From the IMG/VR virus record IMGVR_UViG_3300025646_000343, positions 1 to 24,812 of that record: a stretch of 24,812 nucleotides of DNA, one strand, 5' to 3'. The notes beneath the pieces were generated by a model. It was given only the letters and a program-made list of their open reading frames with translations, was not told where the DNA came from and did not search any database. Within the stretch, counting starts at the first letter, position 1, and the number at the start of each line of letters is the position of its first letter. The translations under genes and the position numbers were made by a program. Source of the DNA: a virus. Of this stretch, positions 28-24,787 are shown piece after piece.

Positions 28-1428
28 ATGGCTAGGAAAAAAACCAAAACAGAAACTCCTGCTTCGGTGATCGAACACTCCGAAGGGGGAATGACTGTTA
101 ATATCAACATTGGTGGTGGCAAGTCCGGCGCCAATGTATATGACGATAGCGGAAATAAAGTTTCAGAAACCGGTGCTCCTGCCGATTATGAAATGGATTA
201 TGGCATGGATGCAGATATGCCTCCTTCCGATCCCACAATGAGCATGGCAGATGACGCCGATCCCACCGCAGATGGTGGTGATGGCGGAGATATGCCTCCT
301 GCTGATCCTACCGAAGACGGTGGTGATGACATGGGTGGTGATGATATGCTTACTGATGACACCGATTCAGACGATATGGGCGGTGAAGATGGTGGTGAAG
401 GCGAAGATATGCCTCCTGCCGAGCCTTCTGAAGAAGGTGGAGATGAGGGTCCTGAAATGGAAACAGATGATGTGTCTGGAGACATGGAGGACGATGATCA
501 AAAGATCGCTCAACTCGCCTCGGAATATGAAATTGATGAGTTAATCAAGGCTCTAGCTCTAAAAACCGATGCAGCTTCCATGATGGAAGGTGAGGATGGT
601 ATGTCCTATGGCGAAATGCCCGAAGGACTTAAAAAAGCCATCGAAGCTAAGAAAGGTGAGAAAGAAGAGGGAGATGAGGAAGAGGAAGAGAAAACCGAAG
701 ATATGGGCGAAACAGTGAAAGAAGGAGAAAAGCCCTCTGAAGCTGAACATCCCACCTCCGAGGAAGTAAAGGGCGCTGAAGAACCCAAGGGAGAGCAAAC
801 CTACGCCGAAGAGGAAGCCGAGGAAGAAACCGAAGTTTCTGATAATGGTGAGGGATGCAAAGACTACGAAGAGGATGAGGATGAGGATGAAGAGAAAAAG
901 AAAATGAGCGATATGGCCGAAGAGACCACTGAAGAGGCTACAGGAACTCTGGATCATAGCGAACGCGCTATGGGAGTTCAGAGCGATTTACAAGCTCGGG
1001 TAGCCGAATTGGAGGAAGAACTAGCCAGACAGAAGAAGTTGATGAGAGAGAAAGAAATCTCTGAATTCTGTGAAACTCTCTATGAGGGCGGTAAGCTTAC
1101 TCAGCAAATCGTTCCTAAGACCGATCTCGTACGGTTTATGGAGACTCTTAATAATAAGAACTCCGTGAACTTCTCCGAGTCAGGTAAAACTTCCCAATTT
1201 GATTTCTTCAAGAATGTCCTTGAGAATCTACCCTCAATGGTTAGTTTTGAAGAATACGCAACCCAGGCTTCAGCTCCAGCAGCTAAGAAGTCAATCACGC
1301 CATCAGCCGATGGGTACATCTACGACCCTTCTACAGCAGACCTCCATGCTCAGGCATTGGAATATGCTGAGAGCAAGGGAGTGGATTACACTATCGCCCT
1401 GAAGGCAATTATCTCAGATAACTCATAA
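28..1428 (+). CDS. capsid assembly scaffolding protein, highly acidic
   Basis: The 466-aa product probably scaffolds capsid assembly. Residues 55-160 and 210-300 are low-complexity Asp/Glu/Gly and Glu/Lys tracts. Residues 320-345 look like a coiled coil. The C-terminal part (about 345-466) resembles the scaffold portion of Mu I-like protease/scaffold proteins: a helical segment, then a strand-like segment around NFSESGKTSQ (381-390), a VSFEEYAT stretch near 405-412, and a terminal helix ending in IALKAIIS. No protease domain is present here; it would have to be a separate upstream gene. It lies 14 nt before the cement protein gene and just upstream of the major capsid gene, the usual position. 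The role rests on that position, acidity and C-terminal resemblance, so it is inferred rather than proven. Confidence 0.75.
   Translation: MARKKTKTETPASVIEHSEGGMTVNINIGGGKSGANVYDDSGNKVSETGAPADYEMDYGMDADMPPSDPTMSMADDADPTADGGDGGDMPPADPTEDGGDDMGGDDMLTDDTDSDDMGGEDGGEGEDMPPAEPSEEGGDEGPEMETDDVSGDMEDDDQKIAQLASEYEIDELIKALALKTDAASMMEGEDGMSYGEMPEGLKKAIEAKKGEKEEGDEEEEEKTEDMGETVKEGEKPSEAEHPTSEEVKGAEEPKGEQTYAEEEAEEETEVSDNGEGCKDYEEDEDEDEEKKKMSDMAEETTEEATGTLDHSERAMGVQSDLQARVAELEEELARQKKLMREKEISEFCETLYEGGKLTQQIVPKTDLVRFMETLNNKNSVNFSESGKTSQFDFFKNVLENLPSMVSFEEYATQASAPAAKKSITPSADGYIYDPSTADLHAQALEYAESKGVDYTIALKAIISDNS
214..429 (+). repeat. three in-frame DMPPxxPx repeats in the acidic tract
   Basis: Protein residues 63-70, 88-95 and 127-134 of the scaffold read DMPPSDPT, DMPPADPT and DMPPAEPS. 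They are separated by Gly/Asp-rich spacers. The DNA is correspondingly repetitive (gatatgcctcc recurs), which suggests expansion by slippage or unequal recombination. Confidence 0.8.
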
Positions 1429-1442
1429 GGAGTAAACTAAAA

Positions 1443-1928
1443 ATGGCAACTGACCCACGTTACATGTCTTTTGACCACCAGTACGTTGAAACTGTGCAGA
1501 CTACAGCCGCTGTAGAAGCCCACAGATTCGTAACTCGCGCTGGTGCTTATCCCGCTGGTGGCGCTTACGCCGCTGGTGTTAGTGTTTATGCAGCCCCTGG
1601 CCAAGGTGAACTCACCGCTAAGGGCTACCAGGTTGATGATGGTTCGACTCTCGTTTACGAAGGTCAACTCAATCCTTCCACAACCCCATTCAAGACCAGT
1701 GTATTCCCATACCAAGGTCTTCTTTCGATTGTTACCTCCGGTATTGCTATCGTTGAGGTAGATCCAACCGCTACCTTCGCTGTTGATGATGCTGTTGTTG
1801 CCAACGCCTCTGGCCAGGCTAACGATGGCGGAACAGGCGTGGTTCTTGGTCGTGCCCTAGATGCTATCACATCTGCCGGCGCTGGTCAATACATCCGCGT
1901 TAAGCTCGGTAACGAAGCTGGTGCTTGA
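1443..1928 (+). CDS. capsid decoration/cement protein, DUF2190-like
   Basis: The 161-aa product is a small, mostly beta-strand, Ala/Gly/Val-rich protein. Its C-terminal half follows the DUF2190 capsid cement pattern: a segment around AVDDAVVANASGQ, then a GVVLGRALDA strand, then a final strand IRVKLGN. Members of that family decorate the outside of HK97-fold capsids, and the gene sits between scaffold and major capsid, as expected. A good Shine-Dalgarno site (AAGGAG, 1427-1432) lies 10 nt before the ATG. The family call is from remembered pattern, so a different small head protein is possible. Confidence 0.65.
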   Translation: MATDPRYMSFDHQYVETVQTTAAVEAHRFVTRAGAYPAGGAYAAGVSVYAAPGQGELTAKGYQVDDGSTLVYEGQLNPSTTPFKTSVFPYQGLLSIVTSGIAIVEVDPTATFAVDDAVVANASGQANDGGTGVVLGRALDAITSAGAGQYIRVKLGNEAGA

Positions 1929-1959: not shown

Positions 1960-1983
1960 ATGATGAATTTAGATCAGGTCCGT
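1960..1983 (+). CDS. major capsid protein, exon 1 (8 codons)
   Basis: This short exon encodes MMNLDQVR. It follows a Shine-Dalgarno site AAGGAG at 1943-1948; the second ATG (1963) could equally be the true start. Reading on without splicing gives only GAA then a TAA stop, so no capsid protein can be made from unspliced RNA. Exon 1 ends in CCGT, which pairs with GCGG of the intron (1992-1995) with the U-G wobble at the splice site, as group I introns require. It joins in phase 0 to the exon starting at 2882. Confidence 0.8.
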
Positions 1984-2881
1984 GAATAATACGCGGCCTC
2001 TTTAGAATCAAATCCATGATAAAATAAGAAACATGATTAAATCCGGTATATACCTTATCAAACATAAATCTATTAAAAATTTAGTTTATGTGGGTAAGTC
2101 TGTTAATATCCATAAAAGATGGGAACAGCATAAAACCGGATTTAGATCTGCTAAAAAACTCCAAGAAGCATTTAAAAAATACGGAATCGATTTATTTGAA
2201 TTTTCTATCCTAGAGGAAATAAATAATCCTAAAGAAATGGGAAAGAAAGAAACTCAATATATTGATTTTTATGATTCTTGGAAGAATGGATTAAATGGTT
2301 CTAGAGCCGGTGGTGAGTGGGGATCATACGCGAGAAGTTTTGTAAAAAACTCAAGTTTTAAACATTATAACAAAACAGACGCGCACAAAATCTCCTCAAA
2401 GAAAGCCGGTTCGATAGGCGGATTAAGAGCAAAATCAAATCTCTATAAAATGTTCCATGAAAATAAAATTTATATCTTCATTGGAACAACAACACCGGCT
2501 CAGTTTTTTAATATAAATCCAAATACATTTAAAAACTGGGCGACAGCAGGTAAAAACTATAAAGTTTTAAATAAATCATCAATAGAGATTTTGGGCAAAG
2601 CAAAAAACTTTGATAACATCGCTCCTAATACGATCTATCAAGAGGAAAAATCGGGTGAATTGCTGGAAGTCTTCAGAAGGGCATAATCCCCAAAAGATAA
2701 TCAGCAGCCAAGCCAAGGAAGGGCTTAGTTTCCTTGGAAGGTTCAGAGACTAGGAGAATGAGTCCCAACAATAATTTCTCCCACGAGTGCCCGACATAAG
2801 AAAATAATTTCTTATGATGATATAGTCCGACACTCCGAGAAATCGGAGATCAGAGATAAAGAGCTCTGAATTAACAGATCG
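1984..2881 (+). ncRNA. group I self-splicing intron (IA-like) in the major capsid gene
   Basis: All core helices can be traced by eye. P1 is CCGU/GCGG. P3 is 2651-2655 with 2790-2794 (UCGGG/CCCGA). P4 is 2660-2665 with 2702-2707 (UUGCUG/CAGCAG). P6 is 2710-2714 with 2722-2726. P7 is 2748-2752 with 2823-2827 (GACUA/UAGUC). P8 is a 9-bp hairpin 2795-2803/2808-2816, and P9 is 2833-2838/2843-2848 with a GAAA tetraloop. An extra hairpin (2753-2758/2776-2781) between P7 5' and P3 3' fits subgroup IA. The last intron base is G2881. The first exon-2 bases GUA can pair with UAC next to the internal guide (P10), which fixes the 3' splice site. The intron carries a GIY-YIG endonuclease gene between P1 and P3. 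Confidence 0.9.
2033..2686 (+). CDS. intron-encoded GIY-YIG homing endonuclease
   Basis: The 217-aa protein has an N-terminal GIY-YIG nuclease domain: SGIYLIKH at 4-11, then LVYVGKS (YVG in place of YIG), then the conserved Arg in HKRWEQH and the downstream Glu in KKETQYID. The C-terminal half is Lys/Asn-rich and should bind DNA at the homing site, as in I-TevI-type enzymes. A segment around IGGLRAKS and TFKNWATAGKNY resembles the helix-turn-helix-like tails of such endonucleases. The gene lies wholly inside the intron and is much richer in A and T than the exons. No good ribosome site precedes the ATG. It should spread the intron into capsid genes lacking it. Confidence 0.92.
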   Translation: MIKSGIYLIKHKSIKNLVYVGKSVNIHKRWEQHKTGFRSAKKLQEAFKKYGIDLFEFSILEEINNPKEMGKKETQYIDFYDSWKNGLNGSRAGGEWGSYARSFVKNSSFKHYNKTDAHKISSKKAGSIGGLRAKSNLYKMFHENKIYIFIGTTTPAQFFNINPNTFKNWATAGKNYKVLNKSSIEILGKAKNFDNIAPNTIYQEEKSGELLEVFRRA

Positions 2882-3841
2882 GTAATTGACCCTATTCTTA
2901 CGCAACTCGCCCAGGGCTATAAGAACTCTGAAGGCGTAGCCACATTCTTCGCTCCTTCGGTATCTATGAATACCAGAGCTGGACGTACACTCGTTTTTGG
3001 TAAGGAGGCTTTTGCGGCTCAGTCGTTCCTCCGCGCTCCTGGAACTAACATCCAGAAGATCCAGAACGAATTCGGAACCCGTTCGTTCGCTCTCCGCCAG
3101 GAAGCGATCAGCTGGGAAATCGCCGAGGAAGTCGCTGCTGAAGCCAAGAACGGCGCTGCTCAAATTGACCTCCGTCAGTTTGCTGCTAAGGACGCTGCTA
3201 ATCGCCTCATGCAGTCTTGGGAAGTTCAGGTTGCTGATATCGTAACCGACTCCGCTCAGTACGAGACCGGTAACGTTCTCGATCTCTCCACCTATAATGG
3301 TGGTGCTGATCAGTTCAACAGCCCAACTGCTGACGTTGAGGTCCTCATGGACGACGCCAAAGAGCAAGTTCGCTCGCAGATCGGTGTCTATCCTAACAAG
3401 ATGGTGATCTCACCTGACGCCTTCAATGCCCTCAAGCGTAACAAGCGCATCCGTGACTTCATGCAGCGCGGTGTGCTCGTGGATGAGAAGACCCTAGCTC
3501 AAATCTTCGGTCTTGATGAGATCCGTGTTGCCCGTAGACTCAAGCTCAACCAGTCCACTGGTGCTCTTGAGAACATCTACAACAACGTTGCTGTTCTCTT
3601 CTACCATCCTTCGGGAGCAACTGATGGTTTCATGCCCGCTCTTGACGCCAACTATGGCAACCCTGCTTTCGCCTATACCTATACTCTCAGTGGTTATCCT
3701 ATCGCCACTCCTGAGCGTTTTAATATTGAGCGCAGAGTATTCACCGGCGACATCCTCGTTGAGCGTAGCTTCGAGCTCGTCGGCATGGGTGAAAATGGCA
3801 AGTGTGGTTCTGGTTTCATCTTCAACAATCCTGTTGCCTAA
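2882..3841 (+). CDS. major capsid protein, exon 2
   Basis: This exon encodes 319 aa, giving a 327-aa protein with exon 1. Translation from the first base reads VIDPILTQLAQGYKNSEG and continues openly to the stop, although the first ATG is only at 2966. The product looks like a HK97-fold-type major capsid protein: an N-terminal segment with SMNTRAGRTLVFGKEAF, then a central helix-rich domain, a conserved-looking NKMVISPDAFNALKRN stretch, and a C-terminal strand region with YPIATPERFNIERRVFTGD. Codon use is noticeably richer in G+C than the neighbouring endonuclease genes, as expected of a highly expressed late gene. It is followed by a strong terminator. The capsid call rests on gene order, sequence style and expression signals. 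Confidence 0.88.
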   Translation, partial: VIDPILTQLAQGYKNSEGVATFFAPSVSMNTRAGRTLVFGKEAFAAQSFLRAPGTNIQKIQNEFGTRSFALRQEAISWEIAEEVAAEAKNGAAQIDLRQFAAKDAANRLMQSWEVQVADIVTDSAQYETGNVLDLSTYNGGADQFNSPTADVEVLMDDAKEQVRSQIGVYPNKMVISPDAFNALKRNKRIRDFMQRGVLVDEKTLAQIFGLDEIRVARRLKLNQSTGALENIYNNVAVLFYHPSGATDGFMPALDANYGNPAFAYTYTLSGYPIATPERFNIERRVFTGDILVERSFELVGMGENGKCGSGFIFNNPVA

Positions 3842-4206: not shown

Positions 4207-4977
4207 TTATGATATCATAGACCAACCCTTATATTCTTTTTTCTTACCACTAGCAACTTCCGATAACTTACTTTTATTGAGTGATAAAAAATTAAATTTT
4301 TCAACTAATTCGAATATTGCTAAATTTTTTTGAATTCCGTATAAGTCATGTTTCCAAGTTCTTAACTTGCAATTTGGATTTTTTCTTCCAGTATACATTC
4401 CTTTAGTTGATTCTGACATTTTCCTTTTTGCCTCTTTAGAATGTCCAACTCTATATAGCGGATGATTTTCACCTTTAAAAGCGCAGGAAATTTTTTTCTT
4501 TGTCTCCTCTGAATGCTTCCTTCCAAAGGCTTTATCAGCTATTTTCTTTCTAGTCTTTTCTGTATGTTTTTTTCCAAACATTCCATTTTTTGAACCTTTC
4601 CTAATTTCACTAAGTTTTGCTTTTGTTTCCTCAGACAGTGATTTACCTCTTAGAGCAAGAGATATTTTTTCTTTTCTTTCTTTCGTAAAAGGTATCGGTT
4701 TATAATATCCAAAATATCCGGCATTTAAGCATAGAGGATCATTTATAAAATGTTTAATAAGTCTATATTCCACATCTCTACATTGTTTATAACCTTCTTC
4801 CGTATAATCAAATATCTCTAAAATTTGTTTTTTTGGCGTGTACACATCCCAATACCATTTATTTGTTTTAGGAGATCCAAAATACTCTTCATTAAATATT
4901 TTTTCTTTTTTACTCCCAAAATAATAAAAAGGAACTTCCTCAAAGGTTATTTTATAAATGTATATCCTAGGTTTCAT
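4207..4977 (-). CDS. free-standing GIY-YIG-type homing endonuclease with NUMOD3 repeats
   Basis: The 256-aa product has a divergent GIY-YIG-like N-terminus: YIYKITFEE at 5-13 and FYYFGSKK at 17-24, with an acidic residue further on in RDVEYRLIKHF. From about residue 97 come several NUMOD3-type DNA-binding repeats: KERKEKISLALRGKS, EETKAKLSEIRKGS, NGMFGKKHTEKTRKKIAD, SEETKKKISCAFKG. The C-terminal part with NLAIFELVEKFNFL and KSKLSEVASGKKKEYKGW resembles the helix-turn-helix tails of this family. The gene is very AT-rich and on the strand opposite to the head operon, as expected for a mobile gene. It should nick or cut a target in related phages lacking the insertion. Confidence 0.87.
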   Translation of the reverse strand: MKPRIYIYKITFEEVPFYYFGSKKEKIFNEEYFGSPKTNKWYWDVYTPKKQILEIFDYTEEGYKQCRDVEYRLIKHFINDPLCLNAGYFGYYKPIPFTKERKEKISLALRGKSLSEETKAKLSEIRKGSKNGMFGKKHTEKTRKKIADKAFGRKHSEETKKKISCAFKGENHPLYRVGHSKEAKRKMSESTKGMYTGRKNPNCKLRTWKHDLYGIQKNLAIFELVEKFNFLSLNKSKLSEVASGKKKEYKGWSMIS

Positions 4978-5039: not shown

Positions 5040-5843
5040 ATGATTAAAGGTATGTCACAACCATATCCAGATAAATTTGGGTTATCTGACAATTGTAATC
5101 CCGCGTCTGTAGATTACTTTATTGAAATATTTGGTTATCAAGAAGCTTTGGAATTAGGATCAATAGACGATCCGACTAGGAATGATATCAACTACGATAA
5201 GATTCAAATAGCTCTTAACGATGCCGCAACTCTGATAAATAATTATATCCTTACGGCTCCGCCACAAGGCAAGATTCTTATTGCTGGGTCCTATCGTCGC
5301 ACCCAAGCTATCCTTGCTCGTTGGTACCTTGATACTCTCCGTCCACGTCAGCAGGTTATTGATGCCGCTGAGAAAGCTCTTCAACAACTTGAATTATGGG
5401 CTGCTAAAGCGTCCCCATCCACCGGACTTAAATGGCAAGAAGCATATCGCTATTGGAATAGCGCTTGCTCGATGACAAAAAGTTCCTACCGCAGAGGCAG
5501 AAGTTTTACCGAAAACTCTACCAATCGTTGGGTACAGAATGAAGGTGGAAATAACCGTTTCTTCCAATTCCCACGCAAAGAAGCAATGTCCTCCCCAAGG
5601 ATCCATTCAACTGCTTTGGATGGAAGTACTCTTGGAATCGAGTCTACTATGCCAGAGTCGACACTTGAAATCAACCAGTTGGTTGATGCCCTCGAGTCTA
5701 CCAGGGATCTATCTGCATTTACAAATACTTCAGATACAGTTGATCCGCAAGATGGTGATACAATTAATGCAACAAATACCACGGAATCTGCCGATGGTAA
5801 CCTTGACAATTATGACGGATTACAGATAGGAGATACATTCTAA
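5040..5843 (+). CDS. head-tail connector protein, Mu gp36-like (DUF1320-like), long C-terminal extension
   Basis: The 267-aa product carries a gp36/DUF1320-type core at residues 18-122: YDKIQIALNDAATLINNYIL, then AGSYRRTQAILARWYLDTL, then QQVIDAAEKALQQLELWAA. Such proteins join head and tail in Mu-like phages. The family is usually about 140-150 aa, so residues 140-267 are an extra, Ser/Thr/Asp-rich, probably disordered tail. The start at 5040 has little Shine-Dalgarno support; ATG at 5052 (MSQPYPD) is an alternative. The stop codon overlaps the ATG of the next gene. The family assignment is from pattern and position, ahead of the gp37-like gene. Confidence 0.72.
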   Translation: MIKGMSQPYPDKFGLSDNCNPASVDYFIEIFGYQEALELGSIDDPTRNDINYDKIQIALNDAATLINNYILTAPPQGKILIAGSYRRTQAILARWYLDTLRPRQQVIDAAEKALQQLELWAAKASPSTGLKWQEAYRYWNSACSMTKSSYRRGRSFTENSTNRWVQNEGGNNRFFQFPRKEAMSSPRIHSTALDGSTLGIESTMPESTLEINQLVDALESTRDLSAFTNTSDTVDPQDGDTINATNTTESADGNLDNYDGLQIGDTF

Positions 5844-6181
5844 TGGCAAATCAAACTTATGGTTATGACCCCTTCAACCCTGCCGCTGCTGACGGAGCAG
5901 GATTTTACCTCGTGGCAGATGGGTCTAGTGGTGGATGTTACTATGGTACCGGATATGGTGCCCTAGGTGGGAGGATTGGTGTCTTCCCAGATGGTTCGGA
6001 ATATAAGCAAGATGCTGCGTCTCTGAGACAGTATGTCATTGAGTTAGAGGCTAATCGTAAAATCCAAGATTTATCCAACGTACGTTTTACTCGTAATGTA
6101 AAACCTGGAGATGCATTACTCTACAACTATACTACCGGTTTCTGGGAGCTTCAAGATTTTATTAGTGGTGGGGAGTTCTGA
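5843..6181 (+). CDS. hypothetical head or tail protein, Gly/Tyr-rich
   Basis: The 112-aa product has a Gly/Tyr-rich N-terminal half (FYLVADGSSGGCYYGTGYGA) and a C-terminal segment reading IQDLSNV then KPGDALLYNYTTGFWEL. That pattern (a D-V-strand, then GD-L-Y-x-x-TG-W) recurs in phage virion proteins and fibres. The start ATG overlaps the TAA of the preceding gene (TAATG), so translation is probably coupled. A place between two Mu-like head-tail joining genes suggests a virion role, but I cannot name it. Confidence 0.75.
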   Translation: MANQTYGYDPFNPAAADGAGFYLVADGSSGGCYYGTGYGALGGRIGVFPDGSEYKQDAASLRQYVIELEANRKIQDLSNVRFTRNVKPGDALLYNYTTGFWELQDFISGGEF

Positions 6182-6184
6182 CCT

Positions 6185-7114
6185 ATGCTTTTGGAGATTG
6201 AAAATCAACTCCATAAGAGAGTCCACGGCACATTGGGGCAGAGTGCTGTTGTAATCCGTCTTGCAGAGGAATTAGATGATAGTGGAAGGGTTGCCGAACA
6301 GGCAATGATTATTGTTAGTTTTTCTTCCAGCTCGACTAATAATCCACATAAAGGAGCCTATATTCCTACTGTTAGAAACAGAAAACTGAGTTATACAATC
6401 ACTCTCATCCAAAAACAAACACAACGAGAAGGGCATAGTTTCTCACTCCCTATCCTCGATCTTATTGCTGATGCGGTGACTGGATGGGTGCCGGAGGTTC
6501 CTGGTCTTGAATTCCAGACAGGATTTGAACTTGAGAATGAGAGATTTGTCCAAGTAACCGAGGCATCTCAATTTATTTACGAGCAGACCTATGCCATCGA
6601 AGTACTTGTGGCAGATGGAAGATTTTACTCCCAGCCATGCGCTGCATTCGATCCCATCTCGATTGAGGATTTCTTGCCAAAAAGAAAATGCCTTCTATCC
6701 CCTGAACAAAGACTCACAGGCCTCGCTGTATGGAGAAGGGTAGTTAATACTGAATACACCGAGGAGTATATTGTCGAAGACTCTAGATGCCCTAGAGAGA
6801 TATCTGATATTCTTGAGTTGAACTGTGGCGCTGGACTTGATGGTTCTGCAACTTATAGGTTTATTCCAAGATATGCCTACTCTATGGACTCTAATGGCGA
6901 GAGAGTTGTTGATGAATCTAAAGTAACTTCAGGTACTCTTCAAAAAGTTTGGAAATGTTATAAAAATAATGTCGATCCTTACCCAGATTGGTTTAAGTTA
7001 AAAATAGACTCAGGACTCTGGAGAAATGAGGCTGGAACAGTCCCAAATTCAAATCCACTAACCTCAGCTTTACAAGAAATCTCCTTGGGAAAGGAGAAAG
7101 AGTACAATAACTAA
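6185..7114 (+). CDS. Mu gp37-like virion protein
   Basis: The first ~170 residues of this 309-aa product match the style of Mu gp37-type proteins: MLLEIENQLHKRVHGTLG, then a run of strands (YTITLIQKQTQREGHSFSLPI) and a helix (ILDLIADAVTGWVP). In Mu the gene follows gp36 and acts in head-tail joining or tail completion. The remaining ~130 residues are less familiar and hold a CPREISD segment and two further Cys residues. A GGGAG ribosome site sits 9 nt before the ATG. The family usually has roughly half this length, so the C-terminal half looks like an added domain. Confidence 0.65.
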   Translation: MLLEIENQLHKRVHGTLGQSAVVIRLAEELDDSGRVAEQAMIIVSFSSSSTNNPHKGAYIPTVRNRKLSYTITLIQKQTQREGHSFSLPILDLIADAVTGWVPEVPGLEFQTGFELENERFVQVTEASQFIYEQTYAIEVLVADGRFYSQPCAAFDPISIEDFLPKRKCLLSPEQRLTGLAVWRRVVNTEYTEEYIVEDSRCPREISDILELNCGAGLDGSATYRFIPRYAYSMDSNGERVVDESKVTSGTLQKVWKCYKNNVDPYPDWFKLKIDSGLWRNEAGTVPNSNPLTSALQEISLGKEKEYNN

Positions 7115-7117
7115 CTC

Positions 7118-7531
7118 ATGGAAGAAATTTTTTTACAAGCTTTAGAGCTACAGAATAATCTCCTTGGCGCCTCCCGCCTTGCTCATTGGAATATTGAGGG
7201 ATCTGATTTTTACCAATTCCACCTTCTTTTTGAAAGGATTTACGGGATGGTTGATGAAAAGGTAGATGGTCTTGCCGAACAAGCAAGAGGACTAGGGATT
7301 GAGATTAAAGCAAAAATTTTTAACTCAGTGCCAGAAATCGACTGGGCTACCTCTCAAGAACTTTGTGAAAATCTTCTCGGGTTGAATAAAGACTTTCAAG
7401 GAGGGTTAGAGAGACTCCGTGAAGAGGCAGAAGATTCCAAAATGTATGGCGTGGTTAATGTAGTAGAGGATATTCTTACAGATTGTAATGTAATCTCTTA
7501 TTTACTCAATTCTGTACTTAATGAACTTTAA
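7118..7531 (+). CDS. dps: Dps-family ferritin (DNA-binding/ferroxidase)
   Basis: The 137-aa product has the Dps core: RLAHWNIEG (20-28), FHLLFERIYG (34-43) and VDGLAEQARGLG (49-60). The intersubunit ferroxidase ligands align as His23, His35, Glu39, Asp50 and Glu54, against H51, H63, D67, D78 and E82 of E. coli Dps, so only one is a conservative Asp-to-Glu change. Dps oxidises iron with peroxide and shields DNA inside a 12-mer shell. The Lys-rich N-terminal tail that binds DNA in E. coli is absent; the protein starts almost at helix A. It is the last gene of the head operon, 3 nt after the gp37-like gene, and its end overlaps a converging endonuclease gene by 14 nt. Confidence 0.88.
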   Translation: MEEIFLQALELQNNLLGASRLAHWNIEGSDFYQFHLLFERIYGMVDEKVDGLAEQARGLGIEIKAKIFNSVPEIDWATSQELCENLLGLNKDFQGGLERLREEAEDSKMYGVVNVVEDILTDCNVISYLLNSVLNEL

Positions 7532-8126
7532 GTCTTCCCAATTTAAACCCTTCTAATACTTCAGTTGGTTTAAATCTTTTATTTATAGATCCATTATTAT
7601 ACCACTTAGTTCCCTTTATCGGATCATTGTTCTTATTTCTTTCAGCAAGATCAGGTCTATTTTTTCCGAACATCGGATTTAATTTTCCGGTAAATCTTTT
7701 GCCATAAAAATAGTTTTGTCTCTTATCAGAGAGTCTTTCTCTTGTGTTATCCGCGATAATTTTTTTAGATTCCTCTGTATGCTTTAATCCATAAAAAGGA
7801 TTATTTTCACCTCTCATGGATTTACTTTTATTTTTTCTCCAGTTATCATCGGGAATCCATCCACTGACTCCTTCACCACCATCAGTTCTATTCTGTAATA
7901 GTCCAGTTCCCAAATCTTTCCTTCCGTAAAAAAGAATTAAGTTTCTTTCATAATAAAACGCAGTATCTTCATTTAAATTTTTGTGAAGAATATGTATTCT
8001 TTGGGTATCTCTTGGGGGTTTTACTCCACTTTTTCTTTTCTTAAATGGTCTATTTGGACGACCTTTGCCAATATAGTAAAAGGTATTATTGGGTCTAGAG
8101 TAGGCATATACAACAAAATTATCCAT
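7518..8126 (-). CDS. free-standing GIY-YIG homing endonuclease with NUMOD3 motif
   Basis: The 202-aa product opens with FVVYAYSRPNNTFYYIGKG (4-22), the GIY-YIG signature with YAY and YIG. A basic helix follows (RPNRPFKKRKSG) and then a conserved Glu in FYYERNLILFYG. After that NRTDGGEGVSGW and a NUMOD3-type stretch (RGENNPFYGLKHTEES) lead to repeated GKLNPMFGKNRP-like DNA-contacting segments. The gene is AT-rich. Its ATG directly follows the T-tract of the terminator of the RlpA-like gene, so it was probably inserted between that terminator and dps. It overlaps the dps 3' end by 14 nt tail to tail. Confidence 0.9.
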   Translation of the reverse strand: MDNFVVYAYSRPNNTFYYIGKGRPNRPFKKRKSGVKPPRDTQRIHILHKNLNEDTAFYYERNLILFYGRKDLGTGLLQNRTDGGEGVSGWIPDDNWRKNKSKSMRGENNPFYGLKHTEESKKIIADNTRERLSDKRQNYFYGKRFTGKLNPMFGKNRPDLAERNKNNDPIKGTKWYNNGSINKRFKPTEVLEGFKLGRLKVH

Positions 8127-8171: not shown

Positions 8172-8531
8172 TTACACTACAGAATAACATATTTTAGTTA
8201 CCCCACGACTTACTGCTGAAATTTTTCCAAAAGCTCCATAAGAAAGATCTAATACTCTACCTGCAATAAATGGCCCGCGATCATTAACTTTTACGATAAT
8301 AGACTTTCCATTGCGTTGGTTAGTAACAAGTAATCGAGTACCAAAAGGAAGACTTCTATGAGCGGTAGTCATAAGACTTGGATTCATAACTTCTCCGTTT
8401 GCTGTGGTTTTCCAAGCATAACCATCTCGATATCCGTAGTAACTTGCCTCTCCGCATTGTTGCCCAGCTTTTGCAGAAAAAGGAAGGAGAGAAAGGGTGG
8501 CAATGGCCAGGGTAACTAAAGTTTTTTTCAT
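8172..8531 (-). CDS. secreted RlpA-like double-psi beta-barrel protein
   Basis: The 119-aa product starts with a clear signal peptide (MKKTLVTLAIATLSLLPFSAKA, cleavage after residue 22). The mature part is an RlpA-type double-psi beta barrel: GEASYYG near 27, then TTAHRSLPFGTRL, then VKVNDRGPF and AGRVLDLS with the conserved Asp residues. RlpA proteins act on peptidoglycan. Here the exported barrel may serve cell wall attack at lysis or alter the host envelope. There is no lipobox Cys after the signal peptide, so it should be periplasmic rather than a lipoprotein. The ATG at 8531 is preferred over an upstream GTG because it opens the signal peptide; a GGAG lies 3 nt upstream of it. Confidence 0.87.
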   Translation of the reverse strand: MKKTLVTLAIATLSLLPFSAKAGQQCGEASYYGYRDGYAWKTTANGEVMNPSLMTTAHRSLPFGTRLLVTNQRNGKSIIVKVNDRGPFIAGRVLDLSYGAFGKISAVSRGVTKICYSVV

Positions 8532-8613
8532 AATCTCCAAAGTAAAGGACACAACGCTCCAGGGTCATCTTTGCAATCTGCAATTGTTTATAGATAAATT
8601 AGAGGCGCCATGA

Positions 8614-21557: not shown

Positions 21558-22202
21558 TTAGTAGTAGATTAAAAACTCTTCACGATCGGTGTAGTAAACG
21601 CCCACACCTTCAAAGTTAGTTGCATCAATGATTTTGAGGTTCTTGCGGAAGTAAGGATAGCCATAATGGCCAAAAAAATACTCCGCATCAGGTTTGATAT
21701 GGTCTTCCAACTTATCCAGCTTAAACCAAGGATATCCTATGCCAGTAAGAACAGAGTTACGGGTCTCTGGTGTATAGTTGGGGTTGTAGTAGGCATGGGC
21801 GCAGCGATAAAGCTTACCATACGACTCAAATTCTAAAGTAAGCGGTGATGTGGTTAGCCAGTGGAGATAATCCAGTCTCTCATCGAGAGATAAGTCCCTC
21901 AGGCACCCTAGCGTATACTTAACTTCTTTTTGAAGAATGTTTTCTTCAGGTAAGAGAAGGTTTTTGAGAATGTAATTCTCATTATTACCGAGTATAAATA
22001 ACGCGTCTCCAGACTTTACTAACTTCTTGACTTTATGAAGCATTCGAAGTGGTGAAGTGCGTTTGGATCGGCGGAAGAATGGCTTATGGTGGATAGTATC
22101 TCCCATAAAGACGTACTTATACCCACTCGATTTATCTAATATCTTGTCTAGAGTATCAACTCGACCATGCAGATCTCCAATAAGGCAATATTTAGTACTC
22201 AT
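21558..22202 (-). CDS. metallophosphoesterase / PPP-type phosphatase, divergent
   Basis: The 214-aa product has the calcineurin-like metal motifs in order: GDLHG (9-13), GDTIHH (34-39, usually GDxxDRG) and GNNE (72-75, usually GNHE), then a CAHAYY and FGHYG with the later His ligands. It could act on phosphoproteins, nucleotides such as diadenosine polyphosphates, or DNA ends. The changed second and third motifs lack the usual DRG and HE residues, so activity or substrate may differ. The ATG overlaps the end of the gene upstream by 11 nt, and the polymerase gene follows. Confidence 0.83.
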   Translation of the reverse strand: MSTKYCLIGDLHGRVDTLDKILDKSSGYKYVFMGDTIHHKPFFRRSKRTSPLRMLHKVKKLVKSGDALFILGNNENYILKNLLLPEENILQKEVKYTLGCLRDLSLDERLDYLHWLTTSPLTLEFESYGKLYRCAHAYYNPNYTPETRNSVLTGIGYPWFKLDKLEDHIKPDAEYFFGHYGYPYFRKNLKIIDATNFEGVGVYYTDREEFLIYY

Positions 22203-22716
22203 CTTTTGCTTCTAGGAGACAACTAGGCGCCCACCAGTCTGGTTCTTCAGTTTTCCAAGTAGCAAAACGCCACTTAGTCCAGTTGTAATAGTTCCGGTAG
22301 GCTTTAACCGGGTTGCTAGGAACTTTGCAGAATTCAGGCATGGCCTGGGCGGGTAGGGTATAACCTACTTCAGGGTAGTCACTTAATACTCCCTCAAGAT
22401 CAATAGAACGGAGGCTGTCTTTACCAGAATGCTCTTTGCCATAACGTATCTTGAATTCCTCACAAAGGTGCCAGGTAAGTTTCCATGTCCAGACAAAGTT
22501 AGGCATTGATTCCTTAACCCATAGGGTACATGGGTGGTTTTTAAACCCACGAACTTTGTAAAACTCTCCATCCTTCTTCCGAGCTGGATCAAATCCGTGG
22601 TGGGCGAGGGCAACGCTCATCATCTGGAGGTGTTCAATAATCATCTTGTTGACATGCTTATCGCAGTGATATTCCGCGGCAGTCTTTGGATCATGATCAA
22701 GGAAGAAGATGTTCAT
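22192..22716 (-). CDS. phage protein of the pyrimidine-dimer-glycosylase-like type
   Basis: The 174-aa product starts MNIFFLDHDPKTAAEYHCDK at ATG 22716, chosen over a start 33 nt upstream because the N-terminus then matches the family pattern: IFFLDxDPxxAAxYHCDKHVxKM. Further conserved blocks are HPCTLWVKES, a CEEFKIRYGKEHS stretch, and AYRNYYNWTKWRFATW. Phage annotators often label this family pyrimidine dimer DNA glycosylase; I cannot confirm that activity from sequence. A strong promoter lies 22-51 nt upstream of its start, so it should head the polymerase block. Confidence 0.8.
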   Translation of the reverse strand: MNIFFLDHDPKTAAEYHCDKHVNKMIIEHLQMMSVALAHHGFDPARKKDGEFYKVRGFKNHPCTLWVKESMPNFVWTWKLTWHLCEEFKIRYGKEHSGKDSLRSIDLEGVLSDYPEVGYTLPAQAMPEFCKVPSNPVKAYRNYYNWTKWRFATWKTEEPDWWAPSCLLEAKDEY

Positions 22717-22737
22717 GGCAAAAAAATCCCTAGAGCG

Positions 22738-22767
22738 ATCATACCCCAAGGACGAGGGTCATGTCAA
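22738..22767 (-). promoter_or_regulatory. near-consensus sigma-70 promoter
   Basis: On the - strand TTGACA (22767-22762, 6/6) and TATGAT (22743-22738, 5/6) are separated by 18 bp. RNA would start about 15 nt before the ATG at 22716. Host-type elements this good suggest transcription by host RNA polymerase early in infection, covering the glycosylase-like, phosphatase and polymerase genes. Confidence 0.8.
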
Positions 22768-22939: not shown

Positions 22940-23011
22940 TGGGAGATACTGGATTCGAACCAGTGACATCTTGCTTGTAAGGCAAGCACTCTACCGCTGA
23001 GCTAATCTCCC
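22940..23011 (-). tRNA. tRNA-Val (UAC)
   Basis: The - strand folds as a full cloverleaf: acceptor GGGAGAT/ATCTCCC, D-stem GCTC/GAGT, anticodon stem CTTGC/GCAAG around CTTACAA (anticodon TAC), T-arm ACTGG-TTCGAAT-CCAGT. The discriminator is A and no CCA is encoded. Only five bases fill the variable loop. Confidence 0.95.
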
Positions 23012-23157
23012 TTGGAGACACAAATCTTTAACCAGTTGACTAGGTTATTATACCCTAAAGTATCAAAATCTTGAACCTCTTTATGTGATTCCAGATAGTA
23101 CTCGAGGGCTTCTATAACCCGATCATAATCTTGTTTTGAAAGAAGGCCCATATTCAT
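23002..23157 (-). CDS. small hypothetical protein, 51 aa, ending in the tRNA-Val gene
   Basis: An open frame starts MNMGLLSKQDYDRVIEALEY and continues helical to NLVNWLKICVSKGD. The stop codon is the TAG of the tRNA-Val 5' part (10 nt overlap). The protein starts inside the gene upstream. MGLLSK at 23151 is another start. The amphipathic helix content supports a real gene, though it is the weakest of this cluster. Confidence 0.58.
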   Translation of the reverse strand: MNMGLLSKQDYDRVIEALEYYLESHKEVQDFDTLGYNNLVNWLKICVSKGD

Positions 23158-23278
23158 TGTCCTCTAGATCATCTTCGTAGGTCGATGGTTCTTCAAACAA
23201 TTCGCGAAGTTTAAGTTCTTGAGCCATCTCTGATAATCTCTTAAACTCTTCCTCGGTGATCAGTCGTTTTTCAGCCAT
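23123..23278 (-). CDS. small hypothetical protein, 51 aa, charged
   Basis: An open frame starts MAEKRLITEEEFKRLSEMAQ and continues as charged helix (ELKLRELFEEPSTYEDDLED). The start overlaps the 102-aa gene upstream by 19 nt, and its 3' end overlaps the next gene by 35 nt. Function unknown. Confidence 0.62.
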   Translation of the reverse strand: MAEKRLITEEEFKRLSEMAQELKLRELFEEPSTYEDDLEDNEYGPSFKTRL

Positions 23279-23568
23279 GGTGGAGCTTTAAACCAACGAG
23301 CAAGAGTATCTGGATCCTGTGGTCCGATGAGATGGTTGGAGGGATCAGGATCTCCCAAATCAAGATCATTCATAAACTCATCTAAGGAGTCTTTTTCAGG
23401 TACTCCGTTGATGGACACTCTACGGGCTTTATTTAAAATCGAAGCAGCTGAGCGATTATTATCTGCCCACTTTTGCGCCCATTGCATTTCTTCAAAAGAT
23501 ACCTCTTCATGATTTGCGATTTTTTGCGCGATAGCCTCGAGCCGTAGTCTTGTTTGTGTTGAGAGCAT
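23260..23568 (-). CDS. conserved phage hypothetical protein, 102 aa
   Basis: The product starts MLSTQTRLRLEAIAQKIANH and holds EVSFEEMQWAQKWADNNRSA, then ARRVSING, then KDSLDEFMNDLDLGDPDPSN. I recall these blocks (the EVSFExMxWAQKWADxNR and LDLGDPDPS motifs) from other phage proteins, but no function goes with them. The end is aromatic and basic (RWFKAPPWLKND). An AAGGG site lies 4 nt before the ATG. It sits between tRNA-Val and tRNA-Leu. Confidence 0.8.
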   Translation of the reverse strand: MLSTQTRLRLEAIAQKIANHEEVSFEEMQWAQKWADNNRSAASILNKARRVSINGVPEKDSLDEFMNDLDLGDPDPSNHLIGPQDPDTLARWFKAPPWLKND

Positions 23569-23612
23569 AAAACCCTTTGCAATAAGAGTCTTTAATCTAA
23601 AAAATTAGTTGA

Positions 23613-23693
23613 TGCCCGAGGGGGGACTCGAACCCCCACGCCTTTTGGCAATTGATTCTAAGTCAATCGTGGCTACCATTACACCACCCGGGC
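23613..23693 (-). tRNA. tRNA-Leu (UAG)
   Basis: Cloverleaf on the - strand: acceptor GCCCGGG/CTCGGGC (one G-U-like pair at the inner end), anticodon stem ATTGA/TCAAT around CTTAGAA (anticodon TAG), a long variable arm with GCC...GGC, T-arm TGGGGG-TTCGAGT-CCCCC. The discriminator is A; no CCA is encoded. Confidence 0.93.
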
Positions 23694-23697
23694 AAGG

Positions 23698-23770
23698 TGC
23701 TCCTTGAGGGGATCGAACCCACCTTAGATCGATTATGAGTCGATTGCATTCACCAGATTGCTAAAGGAGC
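23698..23770 (-). tRNA. tRNA with CAU anticodon, probably elongator Met
   Basis: Acceptor GCTCCTT/AAGGAGC is fully paired, so the G1-C72 pair argues against an initiator tRNA. The anticodon stem is ATCGA/TCGAT around CTCATAA (anticodon CAT). The T-stem GTGGG/CCCTC has one mismatch. A lysidine-modified Ile tRNA is possible in principle, but a UAU Ile tRNA is present nearby. Confidence 0.88.
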
Positions 23771-23821
23771 GGGTGGGTAGGTGGCACTTCTGGTTTATCT
23801 TTCCAGCGCGGGCTACCCAAG

Positions 23822-23893
23822 TAGGACTGCGGAGAATTGAACTCCGTTCACACCGTTATAAGCAGTGGGCCTTAACCAATAGGCGACAGTCCC
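23822..23893 (-). tRNA. tRNA-Ile (UAU)
   Basis: Cloverleaf on the - strand: acceptor GGGACTG/CAGTCCT (G-U at the end), anticodon stem CACTG/CGGTG around CTTATAA (anticodon TAT), T-arm CGGAG-TTCAATT-CTCCG, discriminator A. A UAU anticodon reads AUA directly. Most bacteria use a lysidine-modified CAU tRNA for that codon. Confidence 0.9.
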
Positions 23894-23897
23894 AAAC

Positions 23898-24032
23898 TCA
23901 TTTACCAGAGTCCTGGTGAATGTACATTATACCATAGATCGGGACAAACACCAAGAGGAAACCTAAAACCCCTACAATTCCCCATCTATAAGTATGAAGC
24001 GTCTCGTGAATCCACGGGGATAATTGAGCCAT
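23898..24032 (-). CDS. very small membrane protein, 44 aa
   Basis: An open frame starts MAQLSPWIHETLHTYRWGIV and contains one membrane helix (WGIVGVLGFLLVFVPIYGIM, about 17-36) before a short end HQDSGK. The ATG is inside the end of the gene upstream (47-nt overlap), and the stop lies 5 nt before tRNA-Ile. A clean membrane helix in an otherwise unexplained stretch supports it. Role unknown. Confidence 0.62.
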   Translation of the reverse strand: MAQLSPWIHETLHTYRWGIVGVLGFLLVFVPIYGIMYIHQDSGK

Positions 24033-24147
24033 TGGAGTCTTTAACAAGAAATATGGCATAATAACCTGGGAATTCAACAGATATGCACTGTATTATACCA
24101 CTTTTCCAGACATTTTTATATATAAATCCGATTCTTTTCCCCCTCAT
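23986..24147 (-). CDS. small hypothetical beta-rich protein, 53 aa
   Basis: From ATG 24147 the product starts MRGKRIGFIYKNVWKSGIIQ and reads as a small barrel-like run of strands (CISVEFPGYYAIFLVKDSNG, IIPVDSRDASY). The ATG overlaps the stop of the gene upstream (ATGA), so a longer reading from 24249 is rejected. It resembles small SH3-like phage proteins in strand pattern only. Function unknown. Confidence 0.65.
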   Translation of the reverse strand: MRGKRIGFIYKNVWKSGIIQCISVEFPGYYAIFLVKDSNGSIIPVDSRDASYL

Positions 24148-24560
24148 TTGCCGGAATGTATGGACGGAGGCGAAGGGAACATTGATTCTAGGACATTTAC
24201 TTGGCCGGTTATTATACCTACAACCAATAGTACCCCAGCAAAAATCCAACGAAATTTAGACAATTCATCAACCCGAACATTGAGAGCAATAAACTTTGTT
24301 TTTGTTTGCTCACATTCTTTTTCTTGAGATTTTTTTAACTCCTCAAGGAGTTTCATTATGGCGTTATCAGACTGGATGCTTTGATCAAGTCGCTCCTCAT
24401 GGCGGACTAGGATTTTTGCAACGTTCTGATTAGCTTCAGAAATCTTATCTACAGCTGTCTCGAGTTTGGCAAGCATCTCTTTGGAGAGTTCTTCGTAGAC
24501 GTCAAGTTTTTCCTCAAGAACGGCCAGTCTTACATCGGAGCCGCGAAAAGGATTGGCCAT
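24144..24560 (-). CDS. coiled-coil protein with C-terminal membrane helix, 138 aa
   Basis: The first 100 residues form a long coiled coil (VRLAVLEEKLDVYEELSKEM, AKLETAVDKISEANQNVAKI, HEERLDQSIQSDNAIMKLLE). A membrane helix follows (FRWIFAGVLLVVGIITGQV, about 103-121) and then a short tail. The layout, coil then one C-terminal helix, recalls XhlA-like holin-associated and other phage membrane-tethered proteins. I recall similar MANPFR/MTNPFR coils in cyanophages. It is separated from the tRNA-Ser genes by 46 nt. Confidence 0.78.
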   Translation of the reverse strand: MANPFRGSDVRLAVLEEKLDVYEELSKEMLAKLETAVDKISEANQNVAKILVRHEERLDQSIQSDNAIMKLLEELKKSQEKECEQTKTKFIALNVRVDELSKFRWIFAGVLLVVGIITGQVNVLESMFPSPPSIHSGK

Positions 24561-24606
24561 TATGTATTATTGATTACAAACTATTTTCAATAATACCTTT
24601 AAACAA

Positions 24607-24691
24607 CGGAGGGAGGGGGAATCGAACCCCCAAGGCTTTTACACTCAACTGTTTTCAAGACAGGTTCCGTCGCCAATCGGATTGTCCCTCC
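24607..24691 (-). tRNA. tRNA-Ser (UGA)
   Basis: Acceptor GGAGGGA/TCCCTCC, anticodon stem CTGT/ACAG around CTTGAAA (anticodon TGA), a long variable arm, T-arm with GGGGG-TTCGATT-CCCCC. The discriminator is G, as usual for serine. No CCA is encoded. Confidence 0.93.
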
Positions 24692-24695
24692 AAGG

Positions 24696-24787
24696 CGGAA
24701 GTGGTTGGATTTGAACCAACGGTGCCGGGATAACCGACACGGAATCTTAGCAGGATTCTGCAATAAGCCTGACTCTGCCACACTTCC
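24696..24787 (-). tRNA. tRNA-Ser (GCU)
   Basis: Acceptor GGAAGTG/CACTTCC, anticodon stem GAATC/GATTC around CTGCTAA (anticodon GCT), a very long variable arm (TGTCGG...CCGGCA), T-arm GTTGG-TTCAAAT-CCAAC. The discriminator is G. It lies 4 nt from tRNA-Ser (UGA). Confidence 0.93.

What the first reader, a model, noticed from the sequence alone, without database searches (positions are those of the whole stretch)
7118..7531. A Dps ferritin encoded at the end of the phage head operon
Ferroxidase residues are conserved (His23, His35, Glu39, Asp50, Glu54) and the gene is 3 nt after a virion-type gene, so it is likely expressed late with capsid proteins. It lacks the DNA-binding Lys tail. A late phage Dps could protect genomes from Fenton damage during packaging, in a photosynthetic host in particular, or be packaged in the virion.
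Basis: partly seen in the sequence, partly recalled or inferred. Interest (0 to 1): 0.8.

Follow-up and report, generated by a model that had tools for sequence, protein, structure and literature searches.

The report
Iron-oxidising mini-ferritin in phage head operon
A group of uncultured viruses related to cyanobacterial phage S-TIM5 carries, as the last gene of its head-and-neck gene cluster, a small iron-oxidising Dps-type protein that has stayed in exactly that place with its iron site intact, and Dps domains in several other phage groups are also placed beside, or fused to, head-building genes, which suggests a link between iron detoxification and virus assembly.

Summary
ORF 7118-7531(+) is a Dps-family mini-ferritin: Pfam Ferritin E=1.2e-9, AlphaFold pLDDT 94, best Foldseek matches cyanobacterial Dps. 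There is no N- or C-terminal tail, and pI is about 4.3. The window is a fragment of an S-TIM5-like cyanophage. In 74 of 74 IMG/VR contigs found by a Dps profile, the gene directly follows the same putative tail-terminator gene at the end of the head-neck operon. It is usually closely coupled and is followed by a hairpin. The S-TIM5 clade proper lacks it, and one gain or loss explains this. dN/dS is about 0.03-0.11. Most phage Dps genes with published annotation that I inspected sit in nucleotide-metabolism modules. But elsewhere in IMG/VR I found Dps domains fused to prohead protease (6 proteins), genes ordered terS-Dps-terL (11 loci), and Dps after portal (3 solo loci plus one fusion). A late Fe(II)/H2O2 sink acting during packaging is the best reading. 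Packaging inside the virion is open and unproven. New variant of a known kind.

The parts
7118..7531 (+). Dps-type mini-ferritin, 137 aa; ferroxidase residues H23, H35, (E39), D50, E54; no DNA-binding tail
6185..7114 (+). Gene directly upstream, 309 aa; putative tail-terminator/neck protein (low-confidence model; homologue of S-TIM5 gp156)
   Evidence: weak phrog_209 in 16 of 22 members; Foldseek to phage tail terminators, model pTM only 0.39
5843..6181 (+). 112-aa gene; the S-TIM5 homologue is annotated virion structural protein
5040..5843 (+). Head-tail adaptor/neck protein
   Evidence: phrog_195 E=9.7e-25
2966..3841 (+). Major capsid protein as listed from its first internal ATG; exon 2 runs from about 2885; 86% identical to S-TIM5 MCP
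   Evidence: phrog_1005
1443..1928 (+). Gene between protease and MCP; the S-TIM5 gene in this place is annotated virion structural protein
28..1428 (+). Head maturation protease / scaffold-like protein
   Evidence: phrog_976 E=1.4e-20
7518..8126 (-). GIY-YIG homing-endonuclease-like gene overlapping the last 14 nt of dps; it sits where relatives have a short intergenic hairpin
8172..8552 (-). Convergent RlpA-like (DPBB) lytic transglycosylase gene downstream, next to dps in most relatives
   Evidence: PF03330 E=8.7e-24

Best explanation
The gene makes a tailless (Dpr-like) Dps mini-ferritin. Shown here: the fold, the inter-subunit-type ferroxidase ligands, strong purifying selection, and a fixed place as last gene of the head-neck operon, in many genomes overlapping the upstream gene and followed by a hairpin. 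Inferred: it is made late together with capsid and neck proteins, assembles into 12-subunit cages, and oxidises Fe(II), probably with H2O2, storing the iron as ferric mineral. This would keep Fenton chemistry low while genomes are replicated and packaged in a cyanobacterium whose iron-rich photosystems are being taken apart. It is more likely to work as a soluble cage near assembly sites than by coating DNA.
For: Fold: Pfam, AF2 pLDDT 94.1 / pTM 0.89, Foldseek top hits Nostoc Dps4 and Thermosynechococcus Dps, TMq 0.84-0.89. Site: H23, H35, D50, E54 invariant in 29 of 29. Selection: dN/dS 0.03-0.11 where measurable. Place: 74 of 74 contigs with the same upstream gene. In the 29-protein set the start overlaps the upstream stop by 4 nt in 11 and lies 2-5 nt after it in 8. 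A hairpin lies between dps and the convergent RlpA gene in the 23 distinct loci listed. Presence and absence fit one change on the MCP tree. Host: MCP and DNA polymerase nearest S-TIM5-group cyanophages. No tail, pI 4.28-4.85. Literature: Dps cages consume Fe2+ and H2O2; Dpr homologues do not bind DNA (PMC7762939).
Against: No transcript, protein or activity data. The marine S-TIM5 clade does without the gene. The second-site carboxylate E39 is missing in 8 of 29. Other phage Dps genes sit in nucleotide-metabolism modules, so location need not mean a head function. Cyanobacteria have Dps proteins of their own.
Confidence: 0.58

Rival explanations
1. The Dps is a virion or prohead component. 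It is enclosed in the head during assembly and protects the packaged genome, or is delivered into the next cell to blunt the oxidative burst or seize iron at infection.
For: Fixed head-operon place. In other phages Dps domains with intact H/H/D/E are fused to prohead/head-maturation protease: Pfam S78 in L312, L297, L270, L246; PHROG in L294 and L254. Dps lies between terS and terL in 11 loci and directly after portal in L302, L317, L248 and fusion L280. BFVD also names such proteins 'Prohead protease'. Precedent: enzyme domains fused to portal/MuF head proteins, or solo beside late structural genes, are thought to be packaged (PMC5512222).
Against: No targeting extension at either end of the S-TIM5-like Dps. 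No virion proteomics of a Dps+ member; S-TIM5 lacks the gene. Fused multidomain head proteins may be cut after assembly.
Confidence: 0.3
2. The place is accidental: an auxiliary gene inserted once at the junction of two convergent operons and kept there, with a general cellular function unrelated to assembly.
For: One gain or loss explains the distribution. The gene sits at a convergent operon boundary beside a variable region (RlpA-like gene, homing endonuclease). Operon ends are common places for added genes (inference).
Against: 74 of 74 contigs keep the position at 44-100% Dps identity; further head/packaging associations in other phages.
Confidence: 0.22
3. It manages iron as a resource, storing iron from dismantled photosystems for late steps or for loading into virions.
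For: Dps proteins store iron (PMC7762939). Iron in phage tails and the Ferrojan Horse idea are known to me from memory only.
Against: No sequence feature points to delivery of iron to virion proteins; nothing here tests it.
Confidence: 0.08
4. The four-helix protein is a co-opted structural part with no ferroxidase activity.
For: E39 is lost in 8 of 29 and variable in fusions.
Against: H23, H35, D50, E54 invariant in 29 of 29 and in 9 of 9 fusions, and present in 66 of 69 solo phage Dps.
Confidence: 0.04

Closest known systems
Cellular Dps/Dpr mini-ferritins (Nostoc punctiforme Dps4, Thermosynechococcus Dps, Borrelia NapA, Listeria Dps)
   Same: Four-helix ferritin fold, H-x11-H ... D-x3-E ferroxidase motif, short BC helix
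   Different: Only about 25% identical to Dps4, lacks all N-terminal residues before helix A, scores far below NCBIfam equivalog cut-offs, encoded in a phage head operon
Phage-encoded Dps of PHROG 3636/858 (Salmonella 7-11, Aeromonas LAh_9, crAss cr127_1, Streptomyces Bmoc, Synechococcus S-SRM01)
   Same: Dps-like protein; the window copy matches PHROG 3636 and 858
   Different: Except for S-SRM01, those I inspected lie among ribonucleotide reductase, thymidylate synthase or polymerase genes; S-SRM01's lies between a porin and a tail-fibre gene; none in a head operon
Phage Dps reported in gut Gratiaviridae/Flandersviridae and in Lactobacillus phages (PMC8008677, PMC6669764)
   Same: Phage Dps proposed to raise oxidative tolerance of the host
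   Different: Lactobacillus genes are near DNA metabolism; the passages of the gut report seen here do not mention head-operon synteny
Polyvalent / capsid-packaged phage effector proteins (PMC5512222)
   Same: Enzyme domains encoded with or fused to head-assembly proteins, as in L254, L294, L297, L312
   Different: The paper's main text does not mention ferritin or Dps; the S-TIM5-like Dps is a solo gene
Cyanophage S-TIM5 head operon (NC_019516.2)
   Same: Same gene order protease-virion protein-MCP-neck-gp155-gp156
   Different: No dps; gp156 is followed directly by the convergent gp157

Membership tests
Dps/Dpr mini-ferritin family | Ferritin-type four-helix bundle with short BC helix | tested here: met
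   PF00210 above cut-off; AF2 pLDDT 94.1, helices 2-25, 31-58 (broken at 47-48), 65-69, 79-106, 110-136; Foldseek to Dps, prob 1.00
Dps/Dpr mini-ferritin family | Inter-subunit ferroxidase ligands His, His, Asp/Glu, Asp, Glu at Dps spacing | tested here: met
   H23, H35, D50, E54 invariant in 29 of 29; the middle carboxylate E39 in 21 of 29, present in the window
Dps/Dpr mini-ferritin family | Assembly into a 12-subunit cage | not testable with these tools
   Only a monomer was modelled
DNA-binding Dps in the strict sense | Positively charged N- or C-terminal tail | tested here: not met
   H23 is residue 23 in all 29; protein starts and ends within helices; pI 4.28-4.85, net charge -8 to -16
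NCBIfam Dps equivalogs | Score above curated cut-off | tested here: not met
   31.9 bits against a cut-off of 114 for PRK09448
24-mer ferritin / bacterioferritin | Intra-subunit di-iron site with ExxH motifs in helices B and D | tested here: not met
   Only two histidines (H23, H35) in the window protein; no ExxH in helix D
Virion structural / packaged proteins | Present in purified virions | not testable with these tools
   No proteomics of a Dps+ member

The most novel reading that the evidence does not exclude
Tailed phages have repeatedly recruited Dps ferroxidases into the head-assembly and DNA-packaging machinery: as the last gene of the head-neck operon in S-TIM5-like cyanophages, fused to the prohead protease in other phages, and between terminase subunits in a third group. 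The cage or domain would work in or at the prohead, protecting the genome from Fenton damage or travelling in the virion.
Probability: 0.35. Interest if true: 0.82.

Novelty: new variant of a known kind. Interest (0 to 1): 0.62.

Why it matters
Phage Dps proteins have been read as helpers of host oxidative tolerance. Here the gene is tied to the head operon over a broad clade of viruses related to cyanophage S-TIM5, and other phages place Dps domains on or beside prohead protease, portal and terminase. If real, this makes oxidative protection part of virion assembly and gives a direct test: look for Dps in purified virions.

Tried and rejected
(1) Chance or decayed ORF: rejected by profile hits, model confidence and dN/dS. 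(2) 24-mer ferritin or bacterioferritin: VIA-align scores them as high as Dps, but the His/ExxH ligands are missing. (3) Recent transfer from a host: the best plasmid-borne cellular hits with good coverage are about 30% identical, and the single genome-contig hit (L133) lies among phage-type genes (endolysin and others) in an actinobacterial MAG; origin unresolved. (4) Late promoter: the generic sigma-70 scan (31 sites against 23 expected) was uninformative. (5) First motif scan used the wrong spacing (FxxH) and is ignored; one search has the right one. (6) The root of the MCP tree, hence gain against loss of dps, is not settled: outgroup branch 8.8 changes per column. (7) Fold of the 309-aa gene: pTM 0.39, so tail terminator is only a lead.

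Full report
What is there. The ORF at 7118-7531(+) encodes 137 aa and starts 3 nt after the stop of the gene 6185-7114. It hits Pfam Ferritin (E=1.2e-9, over the cut-off), PHROG 3636 and, as a 29-sequence profile, Dps proteins in the PDB (58 sequences, best E=6.6e-13). AlphaFold2 on the orthologue alignment gives pLDDT 94.1 and pTM 0.89. The best Foldseek matches are cyanobacterial Dps (Nostoc Dps4, 25% identity, TMq 0.89). The ligands H23, H35, E39, D50, E54 keep the spacing of the Dps inter-subunit ferroxidase site (identification of these residues as ligands is established knowledge of the family). In 29 distinct orthologues H23, H35, D50 and E54 never change, while E39 is Q, G or A in eight. 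The window protein has no other histidine, is acidic (pI 4.30), and has no tail before helix A or after helix D. So it is a tailless, Dpr-like Dps.

Where it is. The window is a 24.8-kb virus record. Its MCP is 86% and its DNA polymerase 72% identical to the S-TIM5 group of cyanophages. The + strand operon reads: head maturation protease, a gene whose S-TIM5 counterpart is annotated virion structural, MCP, neck protein, a 112-aa gene, a 309-aa gene, Dps. S-TIM5 has the same order ending in gp156, without Dps. The 309-aa gene resembles phage tail terminators (Mu, T5, lambda gpU) in a low-confidence model.

How conserved it is. A scan of IMG/VR with the Dps profile found 74 contigs. In all 74 the Dps gene directly follows the 309-aa homologue, at 44-100% identity to the window copy. 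In the 29 distinct proteins the ATG overlaps the upstream stop by 4 nt in 11, lies 2-5 nt after it in 8 and 18-47 nt after it in 9; one case at 136 nt has a shortened upstream frame. In the 23 distinct loci listed, the 32-73 nt between dps and the convergent RlpA-like gene folds into a hairpin in both directions, a likely shared terminator; in the window a GIY-YIG gene sits there instead. dN/dS for close pairs is 0.03-0.07, and 0.11 for one more distant pair; many other pairs have saturated dS. Dps distances track those of the 309-aa gene (Mantel r 0.66, 0 of 999 permutations). Among MCP-selected loci, those lacking dps are nine IMG/VR loci plus S-TIM5 and S-TIM54. They lie on the other side of one branch of the MCP tree (SH-aLRT 99). 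One gain or loss suffices; the root is unsure. Many loci are fragments, and some come from the same contig through two searches, so the counts are of contigs and rows, not of independent events.

Comparison with other phage Dps. Annotated Dps genes in phages 7-11, LAh_9, cr127_1 and Bmoc lie among thymidylate synthase, ribonucleotide reductase, ligase or polymerase genes; S-SRM01's lies between a porin and a tail-fibre gene. Papers report Dps in gut and Lactobacillus phages as helpers of oxidative tolerance (PMC8008677, PMC6669764). The open-access searches made here found none describing Dps in S-TIM5-like phages or in a head operon.

An unexpected lead. Foldseek against viral models returned Dps domains inside proteins named 'Prohead protease'. 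Nine encode Dps inside proteins of 371-891 aa. Six of these carry a head-maturation protease or related head domain as well: L312, L297, L270 and L246 by Pfam S78, L294 and L254 by PHROG. L294 lies between a portal/head-morphogenesis gene and an MCP gene, L254 next to an MCP gene, L280 after a portal gene. All nine keep H, H, D, E. Of 68 solo loci, 11 have terminase small subunit directly upstream and terminase large subunit directly downstream, one more has terL downstream, and three follow a portal gene. On the Dps tree the S-TIM5-like proteins form one group (SH-aLRT 82) apart from the fusions, but with 144 columns the deep branches are weak. The association thus seems recurrent; independence of each case was not tested statistically.

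Mechanism. Shown: fold, ligands, selection, position. Inferred: late co-expression, cage formation, ferroxidase activity. The favoured role is to remove Fe(II) and H2O2 while genomes are packaged in a photosynthetic cell. Enclosure in the head is the main rival, raised by the protease fusions, since prohead proteases act inside the prohead (established knowledge), and by the polyvalent-protein precedent (PMC5512222).

Verdict. The finding is real and stronger than stated in its synteny, but its function is untested. It is a new variant of phage-encoded Dps.

Noticed in passing
window 1961-2966: The MCP gene is split by a group I intron (RF00028 core 2559-2849) carrying a GIY-YIG homing endonuclease gene (2033-2686). 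Exon 1 encodes MMNLDQVR and exon 2 resumes VIDPILTQ at about 2885; relative L001 is uninterrupted.
   Followed up: partly
window 4207-4977(-) and 7518-8126(-): Two more GIY-YIG endonuclease-like genes, free-standing and antisense, lie between MCP and neck genes and over the end of dps; three such genes within about 6 kb in one head operon.
   Followed up: partly
L254, L294, L297, L312, L270, L246: Dps domains fused to prohead/head-maturation protease in uncultured phages, all with intact His/His/Asp/Glu.
   Followed up: partly
L242, L251, L253, L258, L259, L286, L290, L293, L296, L315, L197: Dps gene lies exactly between terminase small and large subunit genes.
   Followed up: partly
window 8172-8552(-): RlpA-like lytic transglycosylase (DPBB) beside dps; also absent from the S-TIM5 clade and evolving much faster than dps (dN/dS 0.19-0.31).
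   Followed up: partly
window 22192-22749(-): Protein matching pyrimidine dimer DNA glycosylase (PF03013), another DNA-protection function.
   Followed up: no
window 22940-24787(-): Cluster of six tRNA genes (Val, Leu, Met, Ile, Ser, Ser); Rfam calls the tRNA-Ser at 24608-24691 a tRNA-Sec just above threshold, probably a false call.
   Followed up: partly
L133: A Dps+ phage-like contig (endolysin, NMN-adenylyltransferase-like, SpeD-like genes by eye) sits in an actinobacterial MAG, probably mis-binned; its Dps is 39% identical to the window's.
   Followed up: partly
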